NCBI GenBank assembly: GCA_913050035.1
Contig: CAJXAC010000019.1
Coordinates: forward strand, 1-37,710
DNA: 37,710 nt
From: an uncultured Gammaproteobacteria bacterium
GTDB lineage: Bacteria > Pseudomonadota > Gammaproteobacteria > Pseudomonadales > Azotimanducaceae
Reading direction: 5' to 3'
Made by a program: the position numbers and the translations under genes. Below, in pieces: positions 23,720 to 33,992 of this stretch. Under the pieces are notes generated by a model. It saw only the letters and a program-made list of their open reading frames with translations. It was not told the DNA's origin and ran no database searches. Positions within the stretch are counted from its first letter, which is position 1; every line of letters begins with the position of its first letter.

Positions 23720-25591
23720 TTAGCTCATATCCTCGTAGGGATTGGCTAGGTTCAGGTCGACCGGGTTAGGAAAGCCAGGTATGGCAATATGTTTGTCGTC
23801 CATGCCCAGTTCCTGGCCGTCTACTACCCCTTCACCAAATTGATAAATGGGCGCGACCGAACCATTGTCTGCATTGTCGTCGTAGTCTTGGGCCCGAGCG
23901 GCAACAGCTTCTTGCTTGCGCTGCAGTTCCAAGAATCGATCCTTGCCCCAGCGTTTTTGCAACATGCCTAGGGTATGTTGGGGCGATAAAAATAGCCCGG
24001 TGGCGTTATTGCCGCCGAAGCCCTTGGAGTTAACAAAGGCGCCGGGCTTGGCTGCGGGATCTATTTCTACATGCTGCATGGGTAGATGCAGCGCATCTTG
24101 ATGAACATCATCGGCGATATGGTCGATGGTGGTAATGCCCGGTACCCAACCGTCACGCCAAGCGCCAAGGATAGCCGCGAGCTGTTCGCCACCGGCGGGG
24201 GCCATAGAGTGGCCGACATAGCATTTAACGGCGCCAACTAGCCACTGCTCTAAACCAAATTGCTGGGCTACTTCATTCAGGATATGCGACTCAGTGACGC
24301 GGTTTTGCGGGGTGCCAGTGCCATGGGCCTGCATATAAGTACCGGTCCGAACGAGTTCTTCGCCGAGGATGGCGCGGGCGGAAGCCACAGCTTTCGCCAC
24401 GGTCAAGTAGTTGCCGATACCTGGACCGGGAATGGATTTTTTATATCCATCTGCATTGACGAAAACGTCGCCCACTGAACCCATGACTTGCGCACCGTGC
24501 TGCATAGCCAGTTCATCATCCATCAGCACGATCCAAACCGAAGCCTCGGCAACGGTAAATCCAGCATTGGAGGAAAAGGGTCTGCAGGCTCGGCGATTAT
24601 CGCAATGATCGCTGTTGTCCAGCTTCATCAGCTCTTCGTCTTCAGCCAGTGCCCCCATTACCCTATAGCCCTCAATGACATGAGGTTGAATGGGCGCCTC
24701 GGAGTTGCCAACGATTACGATGCGCTTATCGCCGCGCCGGATATCGTCCATGCCCCGTTTAACGTTGTACAGGAAGGTCGCGCAGGCGCCAATAATACCT
24801 GCGGTTTCGCCGACAGAGCCGAGTACATAGGCGTTAACAAAGTCGCCGGGCATTTCTGGTAGACCCAAGGCGACGTGCTTGGATGAGGGGCGTTTGCCGA
24901 TAACAGGGTTTTGCAGCAACCCGGAGTAACCGTCGGCGTCTAATTGCCCCATAGCAGAGCCGGAATACACTGCAAATTGATCCGGGGCGACCATGCTCTT
25001 GAGTTGTTCGACGCTAAACCCAGTAGAGCGCAGGGTGTCAGATGCGCCGTAAACCGCCATTTGTAGGCCGCGCGGATGATTGCGGCTGGCATATAATGCT
25101 GCAGGGTCAAAGCCTGTTGGTAATTGGCCCGCGCTGGTTACCTTCGAGGTGCGTAGTTCCGGTAGCAGTGCATTTAGGGGTGCATTGCAAACCACTTTGA
25201 CCTGATTATCTCCAATGTCGGTAACCGCCCAGTCTTCGGGTACTCGATTGGGCAATTGGCGTTTACCCGTCACAAAACTCAAGGTTTGACCTTCGGCCCC
25301 CGTCATCTTCAGTGCTGACTGCCAGAGCACGGATTCCGGGTCAAAGTTTTCGATTCGGCGAATTAGGGTATGGTCGCGAATTTGTGCCTTATCACTATCG
25401 GTTAAAGCTGCCGTATCGGCAAAGCCCATTAGTTCTGCCAAGCTTTTGTAGGTGCGTTGTTGCGCTGCCTCAGGCAAGGCATCAAGCACCAGGCGCCGAT
25501 ACGCATGATGGCCGCTGATTCTGCCGGCGGGATTTATGCCGCCGCAGCCGACGATCACTGGCAGCGGCGTGGTTTTACCGAGTGTGCTCAA
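23720..25591 (-). CDS. fabY: Beta-ketoacyl-ACP synthase FabY
   Basis: The 623-residue synthase resembles FabY of Pseudomonas, which starts fatty acid synthesis by condensing acetyl-CoA with malonyl-ACP in place of FabH. The thiolase-fold triad is visible: C270 in GIIGACATFLYN, H423 in QAHGTGTPQNRVTE and H461 in YVGHSMAPAGG. The long N-terminal region with KVTSAGQLPTGFDP and NHPRGLQM, and the tail with GFPNPVDLNLANPYEDM, set it apart from FabB/FabF (about 410 residues). The start is TTG with AAGGGA upstream. It follows the thiolase gene by 51 bases on the same strand, so they likely share a transcript. Confidence 0.88.
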   Translation of the reverse strand: MSTLGKTTPLPVIVGCGGINPAGRISGHHAYRRLVLDALPEAAQQRTYKSLAELMGFADTAALTDSDKAQIRDHTLIRRIENFDPESVLWQSALKMTGAEGQTLSFVTGKRQLPNRVPEDWAVTDIGDNQVKVVCNAPLNALLPELRTSKVTSAGQLPTGFDPAALYASRNHPRGLQMAVYGASDTLRSTGFSVEQLKSMVAPDQFAVYSGSAMGQLDADGYSGLLQNPVIGKRPSSKHVALGLPEMPGDFVNAYVLGSVGETAGIIGACATFLYNVKRGMDDIRRGDKRIVIVGNSEAPIQPHVIEGYRVMGALAEDEELMKLDNSDHCDNRRACRPFSSNAGFTVAEASVWIVLMDDELAMQHGAQVMGSVGDVFVNADGYKKSIPGPGIGNYLTVAKAVASARAILGEELVRTGTYMQAHGTGTPQNRVTESHILNEVAQQFGLEQWLVGAVKCYVGHSMAPAGGEQLAAILGAWRDGWVPGITTIDHIADDVHQDALHLPMQHVEIDPAAKPGAFVNSKGFGGNNATGLFLSPQHTLGMLQKRWGKDRFLELQRKQEAVAARAQDYDDNADNGSVAPIYQFGEGVVDGQELGMDDKHIAIPGFPNPVDLNLANPYEDMS

Positions 25592-25642: not shown

Positions 25643-26806
25643 CTAAAGCGTGCGCTCAAGGGCAATAGCAGTTGCCTCGCCACCGCCAATGCACAGTGCT
25701 GCGATGCCCCGCTGTTTGTGCTGGTTTTTCATGGCGTGAGCCAAAGTCACAATAAGGCGGCTGCCGGTCGAGCCAATTGGATGGCCTTGCGCGCATGCGC
25801 CTCCATGCACGTTGACCCGAGCCGGGTCCAGCCCAAGCTCTTGGGTAGTCAGCATGGTGACCATGGCAAAAGCCTCATTGATTTCAAACAGATCCACCGA
25901 TGCTAGATCCCAGCCAATCTTTTCCACGAGCTTTTGAATGGCACCTATAGGCGCTAGGGTGAACTCGCTGGGATGGATTGAATGGGTCGCGTGGCCAATG
26001 ATTTTCGCAAGAGGTTCGCGCCCATTCAGCGCATCACCGCTTGCCAGCACCAATGCGGATGCTCCATCGGAAATAGAGGATGCATTGGCCGCAGTGATCG
26101 TACCGTCCGCTTTGAACGCGGGCCGCAGTGTCGGTATCCGATCGATCTTTGCGCGCCCTGGTTGCTCATCGTCTGCCACCAGCGAGCCATTGATTTCTAT
26201 TGGCGCGATTTCGCTCGCAAGAGCGCGGTTTTCGATGGCGCTGCGCGCGCGGTTGACGGATTCAATCGCGTAAGCGTCCATGGCTTCGCGAGTGAGTTGG
26301 TGTTGATCAGCAGTATTTTGCGCGAACGATCCCATGGACCCGCCGGTTTCTGCGTCCTCGAGGCCATCGGTGAACAACGCGTCAAGCATTTGGCTGTGGC
26401 CCATGCGCAGCCCGGCACGGGCTTTGTCGACGAGAAAGGGCGCGTTGCTCATGCTTTCCATACCGCCGGCCACTACCGTGGCGGCGCTGCCTGCGCGGAT
26501 CAAATCTGTAGCCAGCATGGTGGCCTTCATGCCTGAACCGCAGACTTTATTGATCGTTGTAGCACCGCAGCTGTCTGGCAGTTCTGCCTGTCGCATAGCT
26601 TGCCGTGCCGGCGCTTGCTTAAGTCCGGCACTGACTACATTACCCATGATTACTTCATCGATTTCGGCGGCATCGACACTGGCCTGGCCGAGCGCTGCGG
26701 CGATGGCGTGAGCGCCAAGCTGTGGTGCCTTCTGGTTCGCCAATGCCCCCTGAAAACTGCCCACCGGTGTGCGCGCTGCGCCAACAATATAAACCTCTGA
26801 ACTCAC
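25643..26806 (-). CDS. Acetyl-CoA acetyltransferase / thiolase
   Basis: The 387-residue cytosolic thiolase joins or splits acyl-CoA chains, for example two acetyl-CoA to acetoacetyl-CoA. Catalytic residues are in place: C89 in NKVCGSGMKA, H342 in GHPIGSTGSR and C372 in CIGGGEA, with N310 in NEAFA. The length and the MESMSNAPF motif fit the biosynthetic-type PhaA/AtoB group. Direction and substrate are not fixed by sequence. The start is GTG with GAGGAG upstream. Its coupling to fabY hints at a role in supplying or regulating short acyl-CoA (inference). Confidence 0.92.
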   Translation of the reverse strand: MSSEVYIVGAARTPVGSFQGALANQKAPQLGAHAIAAALGQASVDAAEIDEVIMGNVVSAGLKQAPARQAMRQAELPDSCGATTINKVCGSGMKATMLATDLIRAGSAATVVAGGMESMSNAPFLVDKARAGLRMGHSQMLDALFTDGLEDAETGGSMGSFAQNTADQHQLTREAMDAYAIESVNRARSAIENRALASEIAPIEINGSLVADDEQPGRAKIDRIPTLRPAFKADGTITAANASSISDGASALVLASGDALNGREPLAKIIGHATHSIHPSEFTLAPIGAIQKLVEKIGWDLASVDLFEINEAFAMVTMLTTQELGLDPARVNVHGGACAQGHPIGSTGSRLIVTLAHAMKNQHKQRGIAALCIGGGEATAIALERTL

Positions 26807-26908: not shown

Positions 26909-27412
26909 CTAGCGCTCGGCAAAGCGCGGAATCAGCTCGGCAAAATTGCATGGTCGAAAATCAATATCTAATTGGTTATGCAAAATACTATTCCACCCGG
27001 TAGCCACAGCACCGGACGAACCGGGTAGGCTAAAAATGAGAGTGCCGTTAGCCAACCCACCCAAAGCCCTAGACTGGATTGTTGATGTGCCGATTTCGCT
27101 ATACGAGATTTGCCGAAATAATTCGCCAAAGCCCTCAATGTGCTTGTCGAAGAGTGGTGTCAATGCTTCAGGCGTACTATCGCGTCCGGTAAATCCAGTT
27201 CCTCCGGTCGTAACGATTACGTTTATGTCGTTATCGGCGATCCAACCAGAAACAACGGCGCGAATTGCATAGACATCATCTTTAACGATTTCGCGTGCGG
27301 CTATCTTATGGTCGTCGGCGAGCATAAAGTCGCGCAAAAGATCGCCGGACTTGTCGTCAGCAAGGGTTCGGGTGTCGGAAATGGTGAGAATGGCACAGAG
27401 CAGATTTGGCAT
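26909..27412 (-). CDS. moaB: Molybdenum cofactor biosynthesis protein MoaB
   Basis: The 167-residue protein has the MoaB/Mog molybdopterin-binding fold: ILTISDTRTLADDKSG, then VIVTTGGTGFTGRDSTPEAL, and the glycine-rich IFSLPGSSGAVATGW. In bacteria it is thought to adenylylate molybdopterin or assist a late step. I used the ATG at 27412; a TTG at 27430 would add six residues. No other moa or moe genes are near. A local client for the cofactor is MsrP at 18515-19444. It is divergent from the giant carboxylase gene. Confidence 0.9.
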   Translation of the reverse strand: MPNLLCAILTISDTRTLADDKSGDLLRDFMLADDHKIAAREIVKDDVYAIRAVVSGWIADNDINVIVTTGGTGFTGRDSTPEALTPLFDKHIEGFGELFRQISYSEIGTSTIQSRALGGLANGTLIFSLPGSSGAVATGWNSILHNQLDIDFRPCNFAELIPRFAER

Positions 27413-27478
27413 GGCTGTAATTGCGCTCAATTGGGCAAATGGCTAAAGTAGCGCAATTCTACACACAGTCTGAAACAC

Positions 27479-30400
27479 GTGGTCAAGCAGCTCATCGAAG
27501 GGGATCGGCTATTTTTTATTGCCGAGAGTCTCGCTAAGGATTTTTCACTTTTTCCTCAGGTCGCCCAGGAAGACCGGCCGGTTCCGGGATTGCTGTCCCA
27601 GCGCGACATTAATCGTCGCCAGGACGAGCTCCGGGAACTGAATATTGATGCCTACATCGAGGCGGTTGTCGTCCCTGCTGAGGATCAGGGTCGTATTGCC
27701 GCGCCGGTGATTATTCGCCAATTAGGTAGAGTCATCGAAGAGCATTCCGCAGGACCTTACTATCAGGCCGCGGTGCTGATGAACTTCGGTGCAGGGATCG
27801 AGCGTGAAGTAGGCTTTATCGCTCAGGACCGCACGGTTGAATTGGGCAGTTGGATGCCCGAACATCATTTGCGCGCAGCAGATTTTATTGACCGCTGTTC
27901 ATCTCGGGCAATGCCGATTGTCAGCTTTATGGACACGCCAGGGGCAGATCCACGAGAAGAAGCCAACGCTAACAATCAAGCCCACAGTATTTCTCGGCTA
28001 ATTGCCGAAATGAGCAATGTTGACGTCCCTAATGTCGGTCTCGTTTATGGTATCGGCTATTCCGGTGGCGCTATTCCATTGGCCGCGAGTAATGTCATTC
28101 TTTCATTGCGAGACGGGGTATTCAGCACCATCCAACCGGCGGGTTTGGCGAATATTGCGCGTCGTCTGAATCTATCGTGGCAGGAATGTGCCAAGTATGT
28201 GGGGGTATCGCCTTACGAGCTATATGCCCAGGGTAATATCGACGCCATTGTGGATTTCAGTCCCGCTGATGGCATAGAGCAACTTGAAAATCTGCGCTTG
28301 GCGCTGATTCACAGCATCATGAATGTTGAATCGCGGACCAAGGAATTTGTGGCGGAAAATCCATACATCATGGATCACTATCGCCAAAGTTTAATGCGCT
28401 ATCTAAAGCCTTCTGAGCAGTTGCAAGCAATGCAGAGCTCGGCATCGTTGGCGCTGACGCGCAACCCTACGGAATATTTGAATGTGTTTGGCGTGGCGTT
28501 CCGGTATCTGCGTTACCTGCAGGTGCGTAAGCGGATAAAAGCCACGAGTACCCAACAATATGGCCGCTTAGCAGAGCAAGAGGTGCCCTCGGGTGAGTTG
28601 CACACTCGTGCGGACCGCGAGCGTCGCCAGACCTTTTTGTATTGGCTGCAGGATCCGGATCGGGTGGTATACGACGAGTCATTATCAAAGGCTTGGCGGA
28701 ACTACCAAGATAAGCGTCAAGCGATGAATGATGAGCGCGGTCGTATTGCGCAAATGATCTTCGGTGAGCCCAAGCAGAACTACGAAAATGCCAGAGCAAA
28801 TCTGCTTTCCTCGGTGGGGGTGTTTTTATACAACCGCTGGAAGAAAGAGGCCCGGGGAAATCTAGAGGCGTTGCAGCAGTACCTGCAGGACGATGTATCG
28901 ACACGACAAATTCTGCAGGTTAGCGATATTGCTGATGCCACAGGCCTTTTGAATGCCATTATCAGCGACGCTGAGCTAAAAGCTTTGCTCTACGAACAGT
29001 TCTCCCATGAAGGTCGTAAGTTGCTGGACGCGGGCCTGGTAGAGGGCACAGTATCTGGCTTTGTTGCCAAGCAATTGGTGGCTGAACTGAATATGTTAAT
29101 TGCCAGTGGAGCACTGGCAGAAGCGGCCGGTGGAGCATCGATGGCCGCTAATAGGCGCTTTCTGAGTGAGCGTTTGCCATCTCACATACCGCCCCAAGTG
29201 GTGGGGGTGAAACCCGTCGTGCTTGCCGAGTTGTCGGTCTTAGACATCTTGCTGAATGAAGAGTTGCGTGCCGATTTTATTTTAGAATGCCAAAACCTGC
29301 TGCTCTTTGATTCCGTCTACGATGCCGTGATTGGCAGCCTGGATTCCATAGCGGCAGAAGCTCAAGCCAATCAGGCCCTATCTCAAGCGTCATTATCGCG
29401 CCTACTAGACCAAACTCTGGGGCAAGGCGCAGATGCCGGTGCGGCGCGGCAACGCCTGTTTGATTGGCATCAGCGGGTAATAAAGATGCCTAAGGGTGCA
29501 GACTTTTTCCGTGCGGTAGAAGAATGGAAAAAACTCAGTTTTGCGCATTTGGCGGACGCGTTATTTGTTGTTGTTACTCATGTATTCAGCGTTTTGACCC
29601 ATTCGTTGATTACCTCCGAGCGCGACGGCAAGACGTATCAGGGAAAGATTGCGCCGCGCAATATCGGGCGCCGCAAAGATTTCTGGAACCGTTTGGATAT
29701 GGCCTACAACGACCTGCAAATGCAGGACGTGTTGCGGGTAATTCGCAGCGATCGGCGCTTTACCTATAACGATATCATTGAGCAGTTCTTTGATCGCTGG
29801 GAGCCATGCTTCGACGATCTTTTGAGTTCGGACCCGTGCTCATTTCCGGGATTTCGCGTATCTATTGAAAGTGCGCTAAACAAAGGCTTGCCACCCTGCG
29901 GAGTAGTTACAGGCTTTGCTGATGTGAAGTCCTTGCCCCAGACACGGGTTGGTGTGGTGCTGTCAAATGTGCAGTTTCAAGCCGGTGCGTTTGATATGGC
30001 CAGTGCGGAAAAAGTCATCCGGCTGTTACTTGAGTGTGCAGAACAACACTTACCGGTGGTGTGTTTCATCTCGTCTGGAGGTATGCAGACCAAGGAGGGC
30101 GCAGGAGCACTGTTTTCAATGGCTGCTGTAAATGATCGCATTACCCGATTCGTTCGCGATCACGACCTACCGATAATCGTTTTTGGTTATGGCGATTGTA
30201 CTGGCGGTGCCCAGGCAAGTTTTGTAACCCATCCGCTGGTGCAGACCTATTACTGGTCAGGCACCAGTATGCCCTTTGCCGGGCAGATCGTTGTGCCCTC
30301 TAATCTGCCGTTGCGCTCGATTTTGTCGAATTATCTGTCGGCTAATGAAGGCTCGATGCAAGGCTTAGTGAAACACCCCTTTTATACCAACATCGATGAG

Positions 30401-32284
30401 TCGCTGCGCGGTGTTGATGCTGCAATTCCGGTGGCCGACGAAAGCGTAGAAGAAGTAATGACGCGGATTCTGCAGGGCCGCTTGGTGAATCAACGACCTG
30501 TAGTGGTTGCGCATCGACCGGTATATACCGACCGCGATCTAGTGCGCCCAGTGCGTAAGGTACTGATTCACGCCCGCGGGTGTACCGCGGCGAAGCTAAT
30601 TCGGATTGCCCAGCAGCAGGATATTCAAGTGATCTTGGTACAAAGCGACCCGGATATGGAGTCTGCCGCAGTTGATCAACTCACCGATAACGATACGTTA
30701 GTGTGTATTGGTGGCAACACGCCGGATGAAAGTTATTTGAACGCCCAGAGCGTGCTTAATGTGGCGGAGAATCAAGGTGCCGATAGCCTGCATCCAGGCA
30801 TCGGCTTTTTGTCGGAAAATTCGGGTTTTGCGGAGCTCGTTCGCTCCCACGGCATTAATTTTATCGGGCCGCCAGTAGCCAGCATGGAAACCATGGGCAA
30901 CAAGTCCAATGCCATCAATACCGCGTTGCGTTTGAATGTGCCGGTGGTTCCAGGCAGCCATGGAATTATGACCGATGCTGATCGTGCCGCCGAAGTCGCA
31001 GCCGAGATTGGCTACCCTATACTGATCAAGGCGGTACACGGCGGCGGTGGTAAAGGCATTCAAGTGGTAGAGAGCCCCAGCGAATTCCAGCAACTTTTCC
31101 ACCGCGTAGGTATTGAAGCGCGCAATGCATTCGGTAATGGTGACGTTTATCTTGAAAAATATGTAACGTCGCTGCGGCATATTGAAGCGCAATTGTTGCG
31201 TGATACTCATGGGCATACCCATGTATTGGGTATTCGAGACTGCAGTGTGCAGCGCGATAAACAAAAGGTAATTGAAGAATCAGCCTCAACCACTTTGCCT
31301 GAGCATTTGTTACAGGAAGTACTGCGCTCCACCGCGGATATCGCCAACGAGGTAGGTTATGTTGGGGCGGGCACCGTAGAGTTCATCTATGACTTAGCCG
31401 CTGATGCAGTCTATTTTATGGAGATGAATACCCGCTTACAGGTGGAGCATCCGGTCACCGAGTGGGTCAGTGGGGTGGACATTGTGGCTCAGCAGTTCCG
31501 CATCGCCGCTGGTGAATCCATTGCGGATCTTGCAGTACAAAATAACGGCTATGCGATGGAAGCGAGGATTAACGCTGAACGTATTTCCAAGCAAGGCGAT
31601 GGTGGCCTCGCGTTCCGTCCGCACCCCGGTAAGATCGAAGAGTGTCACTTTCCGCAAGAAGAGGGCGTTGAGATTATCGCCGCTGTTGGTCCGGGCAAGT
31701 TCATTTCTCCGTACTACGACAGCATGGTTGCGCAGATTATTGTCCACGCCGAGAGTCGCGACGCCGCGGCAGCAAAGCTTGCGGATTATCTGGGTCGCGT
31801 TAAATTGACCGGTATTTGTACAAATATTCCGCTGCTGCGGAAAATATTGGCTGACGAGGTTTTTCTGGCGGGCGTTTACGATACAAACTACTTGCCTGAG
31901 TTGCTGCAGCGTACAGACATTGACGGGCTTATTGAGGCTATAGAACTGGGGTCCGGAGCCGCCGACTCGGGGATTGATCTTGACAGTCTGCGCATTGAAG
32001 CAAGTGACGAGCTAAAGGTGCTGGCGCCGGCAACGGCAATTTTTTACAGCACGCCGTCGCCTTCGGAGCCTGAGTATGTGAGCGTAGGTGATGAGATCGC
32101 ACTGGATCATACATTGTGTCAGCTTGAGGCGATGAAGATATTTAGCCCGCTGTGTCTGGCAGACTTCAATGCCGACGGTGATCTATACGATCCATCAAAG
32201 CGTTATCAGGTCACGCGCATCAATATGAGCAATGGCCAGCAGGTCAACGTAGGCGACCTATTGTTTGTTGTGAAACCTGTTTAG
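27479..32284 (+). CDS. Single-chain biotin-dependent acyl-CoA carboxylase (CTalpha-CTbeta-BC-BCCP)
   Basis: The 1601-residue protein unites all parts of an acetyl-CoA-type carboxylase. Residues about 85-265 resemble AccA (VSFMDTPGADP, then GIGYSGGAIPLAASNVILSL). About 280-800 is a mostly helical insert of unknown fold. Residues 820-985 resemble AccD (FISSGGMQTKEGAGALFSM, then GDCTGGAQASF) but lack its zinc ribbon. Residues 1024-1480 are biotin carboxylase: ATP loop HGGGGKGIQVV, CSVQRDKQKVIEE, and MNTRLQVEHPVTE. Residues 1510-1600 are an AccB-like biotinyl domain with the thumb-like TPSPSEPE and biotin lysine K1553 in EAMKI. It likely makes malonyl-CoA or a related product; substrate unknown. 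The start is GTG with a weak binding site; a stop lies 30 bases upstream in frame. Its 3' end overlaps the convergent permease gene by four bases. Confidence 0.88.
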   Translation: MVKQLIEGDRLFFIAESLAKDFSLFPQVAQEDRPVPGLLSQRDINRRQDELRELNIDAYIEAVVVPAEDQGRIAAPVIIRQLGRVIEEHSAGPYYQAAVLMNFGAGIEREVGFIAQDRTVELGSWMPEHHLRAADFIDRCSSRAMPIVSFMDTPGADPREEANANNQAHSISRLIAEMSNVDVPNVGLVYGIGYSGGAIPLAASNVILSLRDGVFSTIQPAGLANIARRLNLSWQECAKYVGVSPYELYAQGNIDAIVDFSPADGIEQLENLRLALIHSIMNVESRTKEFVAENPYIMDHYRQSLMRYLKPSEQLQAMQSSASLALTRNPTEYLNVFGVAFRYLRYLQVRKRIKATSTQQYGRLAEQEVPSGELHTRADRERRQTFLYWLQDPDRVVYDESLSKAWRNYQDKRQAMNDERGRIAQMIFGEPKQNYENARANLLSSVGVFLYNRWKKEARGNLEALQQYLQDDVSTRQILQVSDIADATGLLNAIISDAELKALLYEQFSHEGRKLLDAGLVEGTVSGFVAKQLVAELNMLIASGALAEAAGGASMAANRRFLSERLPSHIPPQVVGVKPVVLAELSVLDILLNEELRADFILECQNLLLFDSVYDAVIGSLDSIAAEAQANQALSQASLSRLLDQTLGQGADAGAARQRLFDWHQRVIKMPKGADFFRAVEEWKKLSFAHLADALFVVVTHVFSVLTHSLITSERDGKTYQGKIAPRNIGRRKDFWNRLDMAYNDLQMQDVLRVIRSDRRFTYNDIIEQFFDRWEPCFDDLLSSDPCSFPGFRVSIESALNKGLPPCGVVTGFADVKSLPQTRVGVVLSNVQFQAGAFDMASAEKVIRLLLECAEQHLPVVCFISSGGMQTKEGAGALFSMAAVNDRITRFVRDHDLPIIVFGYGDCTGGAQASFVTHPLVQTYYWSGTSMPFAGQIVVPSNLPLRSILSNYLSANEGSMQGLVKHPFYTNIDESLRGVDAAIPVADESVEEVMTRILQGRLVNQRPVVVAHRPVYTDRDLVRPVRKVLIHARGCTAAKLIRIAQQQDIQVILVQSDPDMESAAVDQLTDNDTLVCIGGNTPDESYLNAQSVLNVAENQGADSLHPGIGFLSENSGFAELVRSHGINFIGPPVASMETMGNKSNAINTALRLNVPVVPGSHGIMTDADRAAEVAAEIGYPILIKAVHGGGGKGIQVVESPSEFQQLFHRVGIEARNAFGNGDVYLEKYVTSLRHIEAQLLRDTHGHTHVLGIRDCSVQRDKQKVIEESASTTLPEHLLQEVLRSTADIANEVGYVGAGTVEFIYDLAADAVYFMEMNTRLQVEHPVTEWVSGVDIVAQQFRIAAGESIADLAVQNNGYAMEARINAERISKQGDGGLAFRPHPGKIEECHFPQEEGVEIIAAVGPGKFISPYYDSMVAQIIVHAESRDAAAAKLADYLGRVKLTGICTNIPLLRKILADEVFLAGVYDTNYLPELLQRTDIDGLIEAIELGSGAADSGIDLDSLRIEASDELKVLAPATAIFYSTPSPSEPEYVSVGDEIALDHTLCQLEAMKIFSPLCLADFNADGDLYDPSKRYQVTRINMSNGQQVNVGDLLFVVKPV

Positions 32285-33113: not shown

Positions 33114-33992
33114 ATGATTGAAAATTTAGAAACATTGGTGACGCTGTCTAAAACCGGCACGATGATGGAAGCCAGCACTGCTATGCGTATCTCCCAGTCT
33201 GCGGTGAGCAAGCGTATCGCGGCTCTGGAGCGTTATTACGACCGCGAACTGATAGAGCGGCATGGTCGTAGGGTAGTGCTTACCCACCACGGCACCCGCC
33301 TAGTCGAACGGGTGACGCCGCTACTGTCGGAATTGCGCAGTGTGTTTTTAGAAGATAACGCGTTGCGTAAGGGTAAGATTATTCTGGGCGTCTCCGAGGC
33401 GATCCTGGCCAGCTGGGGACCGCATTTTTTTGCGCAAATTCGGCAACGCCTGCCTGAGGTGGAGTTCGAGTTTCATGCCCAGCGCTCGCCAGTGGTTTTA
33501 GACCGTCTTCGATCGGGTGAATACATGGTAGGGATTTGCACCGGTAGCTCCGATGCTGATACAGATTTAGTGTCCGAGGTCATTCGTCACGAACCCATGG
33601 TCATAATCCCTTCGGGCCTGGAGCCTTTGAAATATAAACTGGGTAAACCCTTACAGGTGCTGACAATTGAGTCGCGCTCTGGTGCCTGGGGTTCTATTGA
33701 AGAAAACATGCAGCGGCTGAATCTCGACCGAGTGGTATCGTTAGAATCATTTTTTGCTGTAGCGCAAATGGCTCTGTCTGGTTTCGGTCATGGCTTGGTG
33801 CCTATCGGTGTGGCGCATACCCTCGGCATTGATGATAAGGCTCTAATAAAGTTACCGCGCAATCAAGCTGCGCGGCCAACCCTTACCCGGCCGGTGCGTT
33901 TCGTTGCGCGTAAGTCTATGTTCGCCCAAGCACTGGTGCGCAGTTTTTATGCCGAGGCATCACTCCATGCGGCCGCAATGGACAGTGATTGA
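33114..33992 (+). CDS. LysR-family transcriptional regulator
   Basis: The 292-residue protein has an N-terminal winged helix-turn-helix (about residues 2-60) with GTMMEASTAMRISQSAVSKRIAALE, the LysR signature. A substrate-binding domain (about 90-290) follows. It lies divergent from the TauE/SafE permease, the common arrangement for a regulator and its target, so it likely senses an anion handled by the permease (inference). There is no clear Shine-Dalgarno sequence before the ATG. A seven-codon frame at 33081-33104 precedes it in the leader. Confidence 0.9.
   Translation: MIENLETLVTLSKTGTMMEASTAMRISQSAVSKRIAALERYYDRELIERHGRRVVLTHHGTRLVERVTPLLSELRSVFLEDNALRKGKIILGVSEAILASWGPHFFAQIRQRLPEVEFEFHAQRSPVVLDRLRSGEYMVGICTGSSDADTDLVSEVIRHEPMVIIPSGLEPLKYKLGKPLQVLTIESRSGAWGSIEENMQRLNLDRVVSLESFFAVAQMALSGFGHGLVPIGVAHTLGIDDKALIKLPRNQAARPTLTRPVRFVARKSMFAQALVRSFYAEASLHAAAMDSD

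What the first reader, a model, noticed from the sequence alone, without database searches (positions are those of the whole stretch)
27479..32284. One polypeptide carries a whole acetyl-CoA-type carboxylase in the order A-D-C-B
Seen: AccA-like, AccD-like, AccC-like and AccB-like motifs lie in one 1601-residue frame, in that order. Known: bacterial acetyl-CoA carboxylase is normally four separate proteins. The single-chain acyl-CoA carboxylases I know begin with biotin carboxylase and end with the carboxyltransferase, and standard fused carboxyltransferases put the AccD-like half first. Inference: this is a distinct fusion that may work alone and differ in substrate, regulation or assembly.
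Basis: partly seen in the sequence, partly recalled or inferred. Interest (0 to 1): 0.85.

Follow-up and report, generated by a model that had tools for sequence, protein, structure and literature searches.

The report
Known single-chain acetyl-CoA carboxylase, AccS
One long protein carries all four parts of the enzyme that starts fatty-acid synthesis, in an unusual order; the order is real, but the same enzyme is already known from Shewanella, with genetics and a solved structure, so this is a new member of a known kind.

Summary
Window 27479-32284 (+) is one 1601-residue frame with a CT-alpha (AccA-like) part, a helical middle, a CT-beta (AccD-like) part, biotin carboxylase and biotin carrier, in that order.

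The claim of novelty does not hold. The best PDB match is the full-length "AccADCB" of Shewanella oneidensis, a cryo-EM holoenzyme dimer (9kkm, released 2025-11-19). A 2016 paper calls the gene accS (SO_0840); a 2024 paper reports a biotinylated protein, an activator (AccR), and rescue of low AccS by E. coli acc genes.

What I add is context. Of 30 genomes with the fusion, 27 lack stand-alone accA and accD over cut-off; of 20 without it, 19 have accA and 20 accD. In the window's genome and three relatives the old operon reads aroQ-accB-prmA: accC is gone, an orphan accB remains. The window protein is a longer form, with an extra 97-residue segment (472-568), and its gene faces moaB, not accR. 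Most likely it is this organism's housekeeping acetyl-CoA carboxylase.

The parts
27479..32284 (+). accS / AccADCB, single-chain acetyl-CoA carboxylase, 1601 aa
27728..28273 (+). CT-alpha (AccA-like) half, residues about 84-265; Gly-Gly at 196-197
   Evidence: Pfam ACCA 121-270; model; invariant columns
28274..29788 (+). long helical middle, residues about 266-770, no Pfam family at E 0.001
   Evidence: no family; helices
28892..29182 (+). segment 472-568 of the long form: 85-97 residues aligned in 7 of 14 relatives, at most 24 in the other 7; not aligned to 9kkm
29789..30373 (+). CT-beta (AccD-like) half, residues about 771-965; Gly-Gly at 909-910; no CxxC anywhere in the protein, so no AccD-type zinc ribbon
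   Evidence: NCBIfam accD 771-917; model
30551..31909 (+). biotin carboxylase (AccC-like), residues 1025-1477
32009..32281 (+). biotin carrier (AccB-like), residues 1511-1601; biotin lysine K1553 in EAMK
26909..27430 (-). moaB-like gene, divergent from accS, 48 bp from the GTG start (in Shewanella the LysR gene accR is the divergent neighbour)
   Evidence: Shewanella:
25643..26806 (-). thiolase, conserved neighbour in the family
23720..25591 (-). 623-aa atypical beta-ketoacyl-synthase-like protein, conserved neighbour in the family

Best explanation
This is AccS (AccADCB), the single-chain acetyl-CoA carboxylase known from Shewanella, here in a longer form from another gammaproteobacterial family. 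It most likely makes the cell's malonyl-CoA. The BC part uses ATP and bicarbonate to carboxylate biotin on K1553 of the C-terminal carrier; the carrier then swings to the CT site formed by the N-terminal AccA-like and central AccD-like parts, where acetyl-CoA becomes malonyl-CoA. Shown here: the domains, the conserved residues, the absence of stand-alone accA/accD in most genomes that have it, and the fold match to the S. oneidensis holoenzyme. Inferred: the catalysis, acetyl-CoA as substrate, and a dimer like 9kkm.
For: Match to 9kkm_A over residues 8-471 and 569-1601 (1699.7 bits). Foldseek top hit 9kkm_A, 'holoenzyme dimer from Shewanella oneidensis, mutant E1238A': TM 0.79 over 1003 columns, 46% identity. 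Position 1238 of the equally long S. algicola protein is the glutamate that is E1323 here (that it is the residue changed in 9kkm is inferred). Active-site positions invariant in 15 of 15. Stand-alone accA and accD over cut-off in 3 of 30 genomes with the fusion, against 19 of 20 and 20 of 20 without it; counting only the 24 of the 30 that are at least 90% complete and at most 5% contaminated, still 3 of 24. The window's genome has neither over cut-off. The 34 fusion BC domains form one side of a branch, support 100/100, apart from 32 AccC rows and 3 other BC rows. Published: the growth defect of S. oneidensis with low AccS is made good by E. coli acc genes, and AccS is biotinylated.
Against: No enzyme assay of this protein. 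The AccD half and the carrier score below family cut-offs. Three genomes (G374, G414, G167) carry the fusion beside a complete separate accABCD, so in some lineages it is not the only enzyme. The window's genome is 91.67% complete in 120 contigs, so absence there is weaker than in its six family relatives, which are 97-100% complete. Six of the 30 genomes with the fusion are less complete (65-89%; one of them also 6% contaminated), whereas the 20 without it are 94-100% complete.
Confidence: 0.93

Rival explanations
1. An acyl-CoA carboxylase of the same make-up that prefers propionyl-CoA or longer acyl-CoA, as a catabolic or specialised enzyme.
For: Domain families alone do not fix the substrate. 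In G374 and G414 a divergent relative (38 and 40% identity) lies in a cluster with FabA, ketosynthase and FabV genes, in genomes that also have accABCD.
Against: 27 of 30 genomes with the fusion lack accA and accD over cut-off. The window's genome has other biotin carboxylases and carboxyltransferases that could serve other substrates (their PCC/MCC nature is inferred), among them a conventional BC-BCCP-CT chain. E. coli acc genes make up for low AccS in S. oneidensis.
Confidence: 0.04
2. The window's organism still has a normal AccA/AccB/AccC/AccD enzyme, lost from the assembly, and the fusion is an extra copy.
For: accB is still present and the assembly is 91.67% complete. One Shewanella (L155) has the fusion and, beside aroQ-accB, an accC frame; three of the 30 genomes have full sets.
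Against: In the window's genome accC is missing from within the stretch aroQ-accB-prmA, with accB overlapping prmA; the same order occurs in G404, G543 and G497, each 99% complete, and none of the four has an accC over cut-off. accA and accD are below cut-off in 7 of 7 family members tested, the window's genome included.
Confidence: 0.02

Closest known systems
AccS / AccADCB of Shewanella oneidensis (SO_0840; PDB 9kkm, 9w4a)
   Same: Same four parts in the same order, aligned over residues 8-471 and 569-1601, same fold over the CT and middle part; S. oneidensis is also reported to lack AccABCD and to keep an additional AccB, SO_0511.
   Different: 1601 aa against 1517 aa; extra segment 472-568; the divergent neighbour is moaB, not the LysR activator accR; the LysR gene at 33114-33992 is only 19% identical, over 146 residues, to the LysR divergent from the S. 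algicola fusion.
Four-subunit bacterial acetyl-CoA carboxylase (E. coli AccA, AccB, AccC, AccD)
   Same: Homologous parts and, by inference, the same two half-reactions.
   Different: One chain; no CxxC in 15 of 15 sequences, so no AccD zinc ribbon (the ribbon is recalled from E. coli); BC domains form a group apart from AccC.
BC-first single-chain acyl-CoA carboxylases (BC-BCCP-CT; PDB 5fif is the CT domain of one; their order is recalled)
   Same: All activities in one chain.
   Different: Opposite order. The window's genome also holds one of these (1119 aa, L168:9060-12419).

Membership tests
AccS / AccADCB single-chain acetyl-CoA carboxylase | CT-alpha, CT-beta, BC, BCCP in that order in one chain | tested here: met
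   AccD and BCCP matches are below family cut-offs
AccS / AccADCB single-chain acetyl-CoA carboxylase | Homology to S. oneidensis AccADCB along the whole chain, helical middle included | tested here: met
   (residues 8-471 and 569-1601 aligned; 472-568 not)
AccS / AccADCB single-chain acetyl-CoA carboxylase | BC domain groups with those of Shewanella fusions, apart from AccC | tested here: met
   34 fusion rows, 100/100, all 200 bootstrap trees; the tree carries warnings about four long rows, all outside the fusion group
AccS / AccADCB single-chain acetyl-CoA carboxylase | Biotin lysine and biotin-carboxylase active-site residues present | tested here: met
   (roles recalled)
AccS / AccADCB single-chain acetyl-CoA carboxylase | Makes malonyl-CoA from acetyl-CoA | not testable with these tools
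   needs an assay
AccS / AccADCB single-chain acetyl-CoA carboxylase | Divergent accR (LysR) next to the gene; reported as conserved in Shewanella, a genomic habit rather than a defining feature | tested here: not met
   moaB is the divergent neighbour; the window's LysR is 19% identical over 146 residues to the Shewanella one
Four-subunit acetyl-CoA carboxylase | Separate AccA and AccD over family cut-off | tested here: not met
   (controls ring in 12 of 14 named genomes, over the cut-off in 7 and 6)
BC-first single-chain acyl-CoA carboxylase | BC at the N-terminus, CT at the C-terminus | tested here: not met

The most novel reading that the evidence does not exclude
In this family the fusion and the orphan AccB work together. 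AccB, kept in the old operon place after accC was lost and with its biotin lysine intact in 4 of 4 family members in which it was found (G000, G404, G543, G497; it was not found over cut-off in the other 3 tested), could serve as a second carrier or a biotin-level sensor for the single-chain enzyme, while the extra helical segment 472-568 changes assembly or control compared with the Shewanella dimer.
Probability: 0.1. Interest if true: 0.45.

Novelty: new member of a known kind. Interest (0 to 1): 0.25.

Why it matters
It supports the view that a third layout of acetyl-CoA carboxylase, with the carboxyltransferase first, is the main enzyme in several gammaproteobacterial families besides Shewanella. 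The partly dismantled accBC operon shows a stage in the replacement of a four-gene essential enzyme by one gene. For this protein itself the news is modest, because the Shewanella enzyme already has genetics and a structure.

Tried and rejected
A new architecture: rejected because of PDB 9kkm and the AccS papers.

A missed frameshift or a chance joining of neighbouring genes: rejected; the frame is open throughout and 15 sequences of 1510-1661 aa align over their length.

Regulation by the window's LysR gene as AccR: not supported.

Spread outside Gammaproteobacteria: the phylum survey found 6 of 398 genomes, all six in the window's class (it does not tell how many of the 398 lie outside that class). 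Loci labelled Verrucomicrobia, Desulfuromonadales and Acidobacteria (L078, L082, L083) exist, but are contigs of metagenome bins and may be mis-binned; L083 holds only the BC-carrier end and L082's open frame around the BC part has only 746 codons. I did not settle this.

Paper searches that found no paper on the cryo-EM structure: '9kkm' and 'acetyl-CoA carboxylase' + 'holoenzyme' + 'Shewanella' + 'cryo-EM structure', from 2023. The library lacks most subscription journals and all bioRxiv preprints, so a paper may exist. each listed one paper (PMC12014800, PMC3199775, PMC10269507), none opened.

I did not test whether the orphan AccB is under selection, did not fold the BC and carrier parts, and did not look for accA, accC or accD in the named Shewanella genomes (only accB).

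Full report
What is there. Window 27479-32284 on the + strand is a single open frame of 1601 codons with a GTG start. Pfam finds the AccA-type carboxyltransferase at residues 121-270, the three biotin-carboxylase domains between 1025 and 1473, and a sub-threshold biotin carrier. NCBIfam adds an AccD-type match at 771-917 and a BCCP match at 1511-1599, both below the families' own cut-offs. The AccD match recurs inside the fusion frame in 30 of 30 genomes with the fusion, E 2.2e-14 to 1.1e-6. A model of residues 1-1025 from a 15-sequence alignment (mean pLDDT 77.5, parts of 907-954 under 50) alternates strands and helices at about 84-258 and 771-965, with helices between. The order A-D-C-B is therefore correct.

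It is already known. A sequence search of the PDB gives 9kkm_A, "Acetyl-CoA carboxylase multifunctional enzyme AccADCB", 1517 aa, at 1699.7 bits, aligned over residues 8-471 and 569-1601. Foldseek gives the same entry first, with a title that begins [quoted passage not shown], released 2025-11-19, TM 0.79 over 1003 columns and 46% identity; the next eight rows are AccA/AccD-type carboxyltransferases (the listing does not say which half of the model they match). The S. algicola fusion, also 1517 aa, aligns to 9kkm over residues 1-1516; its residue 1238 is the glutamate that is E1323 here. Passages of PMC4793157 (2016) state that S. oneidensis lacks AccABCD homologues, that one gene, accS (SO_0840, 1517 aa), replaces them, and that an extra AccB (SO_0511) exists. 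The abstract, outline and passages of PMC11602165 (2024) describe the activator AccR, biotinylation of AccS at about 170 kDa, correction by E. coli acc genes of the growth defect caused by low AccS, the unusual domain order, and the accR-accS arrangement in Shewanella and in Motilimonas, Parashewanella and two further named genera. [quoted passage not shown] One sentence of PMC9803151 lists "accADCB" in Berkiella, which may mean four genes.

Distribution. A match at E <= 1e-150 was found in 6 of 369 genomes of the class, 25 of 194 of the order and 6 of 398 of the phylum, all six in the window's class; each count includes the window's own genome. The order matches include seven genomes of the window's family, its own among them; no same-family genome is among the non-matching rows shown, but 149 non-matching rows were not shown.

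Replacement of the four-gene enzyme. I compared 30 genomes with the fusion (25, five more) with 20 without it. In 26 of the 30 the open frame has more than 1500 codons; in G384, G427, G455 and G509 it is shorter or split between contigs, so the whole order was not seen there. The 20 without were 17 of the 20 non-matching same-order genomes shown (I left out G370, G379 and G389, 75-89% complete) and three. Stand-alone accA over cut-off: 3 of 30 with the fusion, 19 of 20 without; the twentieth, G380, scores 318.6 against 319.3 and starts at base 5 of its contig. accD: 3 of 30 and 20 of 20. Among the 24 of 30 that are at least 90% complete and at most 5% contaminated, both counts are 3 of 24. accB: 7 of 30 and 19 of 20. 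accC: 5 of 30 and 19 of 20; two of the five (G439, G403) just pass, and those genomes have no stand-alone accB over cut-off. G386, among those without the fusion, lacks both accB and accC over cut-off. The three exceptions with complete sets are G374, G414 and G167. Against my reading, these three show that the fusion can coexist with the four-gene enzyme. The family searches were controlled on 14 named genomes; accA and accD rang in 12, over the cut-off in 7 and 6.

A dismantled operon. In the window's genome the order is aroQ-accB-prmA, with accB overlapping prmA and no accC (aroQ and prmA were recognised from the translations, not by a domain call; the usual order aroQ-accB-accC-prmA is recalled). 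The same holds in G404, G543 and G497 and in the named bin of locus L074 (L157). An uncultured Shewanella keeps an accC frame behind aroQ-accB beside its fusion, read up to the end of the locus. In S. abyssi an SDR-like gene, not accC, follows accB, and the biotin lysine reads threonine. S. algicola has no accB match at E <= 1e-12. Of 7 AccB rows aligned, one of them the row still beside accC, 6 have the biotin lysine. In G440, G469 and G521 of the same family no accB passes the cut-off. That an extra AccB exists in S. oneidensis was already in print.

Origin and variants. In a tree of 69 BC domains the 34 fusion rows form one side of a branch (100/100, all 200 bootstrap trees) on a stem of 1.4 changes per column, apart from 32 AccC and 3 other BC rows. 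The 69 rows are a subset of 132 hits: I dropped second copies of the same locus, one further fusion row (L032), and part of the AccC rows. The AccC rows hold one gammaproteobacterial sequence at most that I know of (L155), and the program warned of four long rows (L002, L003, L004, L155), all outside the fusion group. One origin of the BC part is supported; the root is not known. Two length forms exist: residues 472-568 are matched by 85-97 residues in 7 of 14 relatives and by at most 24 in the other 7. No CxxC pair occurs in any of 15 sequences, so the AccD zinc ribbon, recalled from E. coli, is absent.

Neighbourhood. The gene faces moaB. Among the family loci scanned, a ketosynthase-like gene of about 620 codons was found near the fusion in 5 of 5 (window, L044, L046, L047, L048), a thiolase in 4 of 4 (window, L044, L046, L048) and MoaB in 4 of 4 (window, L046, L047, L048). 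In Shewanella the divergent gene is a LysR regulator. The window's LysR gene lies downstream, beyond a TauE-type gene, and is not close to it. [quoted passage not shown] I did not test whether the window's LysR is that one.

Verdict. A sound observation; the enzyme is a new, longer member of a known kind, most likely the housekeeping acetyl-CoA carboxylase.

Noticed in passing
L014:596-2392 (G000:C2); L161, L162, L163, L157: Orphan accB kept between aroQ and prmA after loss of accC; biotin motif intact in these five.
   Followed up: partly
L156:1498-1956 (Shewanella abyssi): accB without accC beside it, whose biotin-attachment lysine is threonine, as if decaying or reused.
   Followed up: no
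L056:1418-12130 and L057:4636-14947 (G374, G414): A divergent AccADCB sits in a cluster with FabA, ketosynthase and FabV genes, with acyltransferase and AraC-type regulator genes close by, in genomes that also have accABCD: perhaps a second, self-supplied fatty-acid pathway.
   Followed up: partly
L168:9060-12419 (G000:C11): The window's genome also encodes a conventional BC-BCCP-CT single-chain carboxylase of 1119 aa.
   Followed up: partly
window 23720-25591 (-): 623-aa atypical ketosynthase-like protein, conserved beside a thiolase and moaB in the family; far below the FabF cut-offs.
   Followed up: no
L078, L082, L083: Fusion genes on contigs of bins labelled Verrucomicrobia, Desulfuromonadales and Acidobacteria: transfer or mis-binning.
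   Followed up: no
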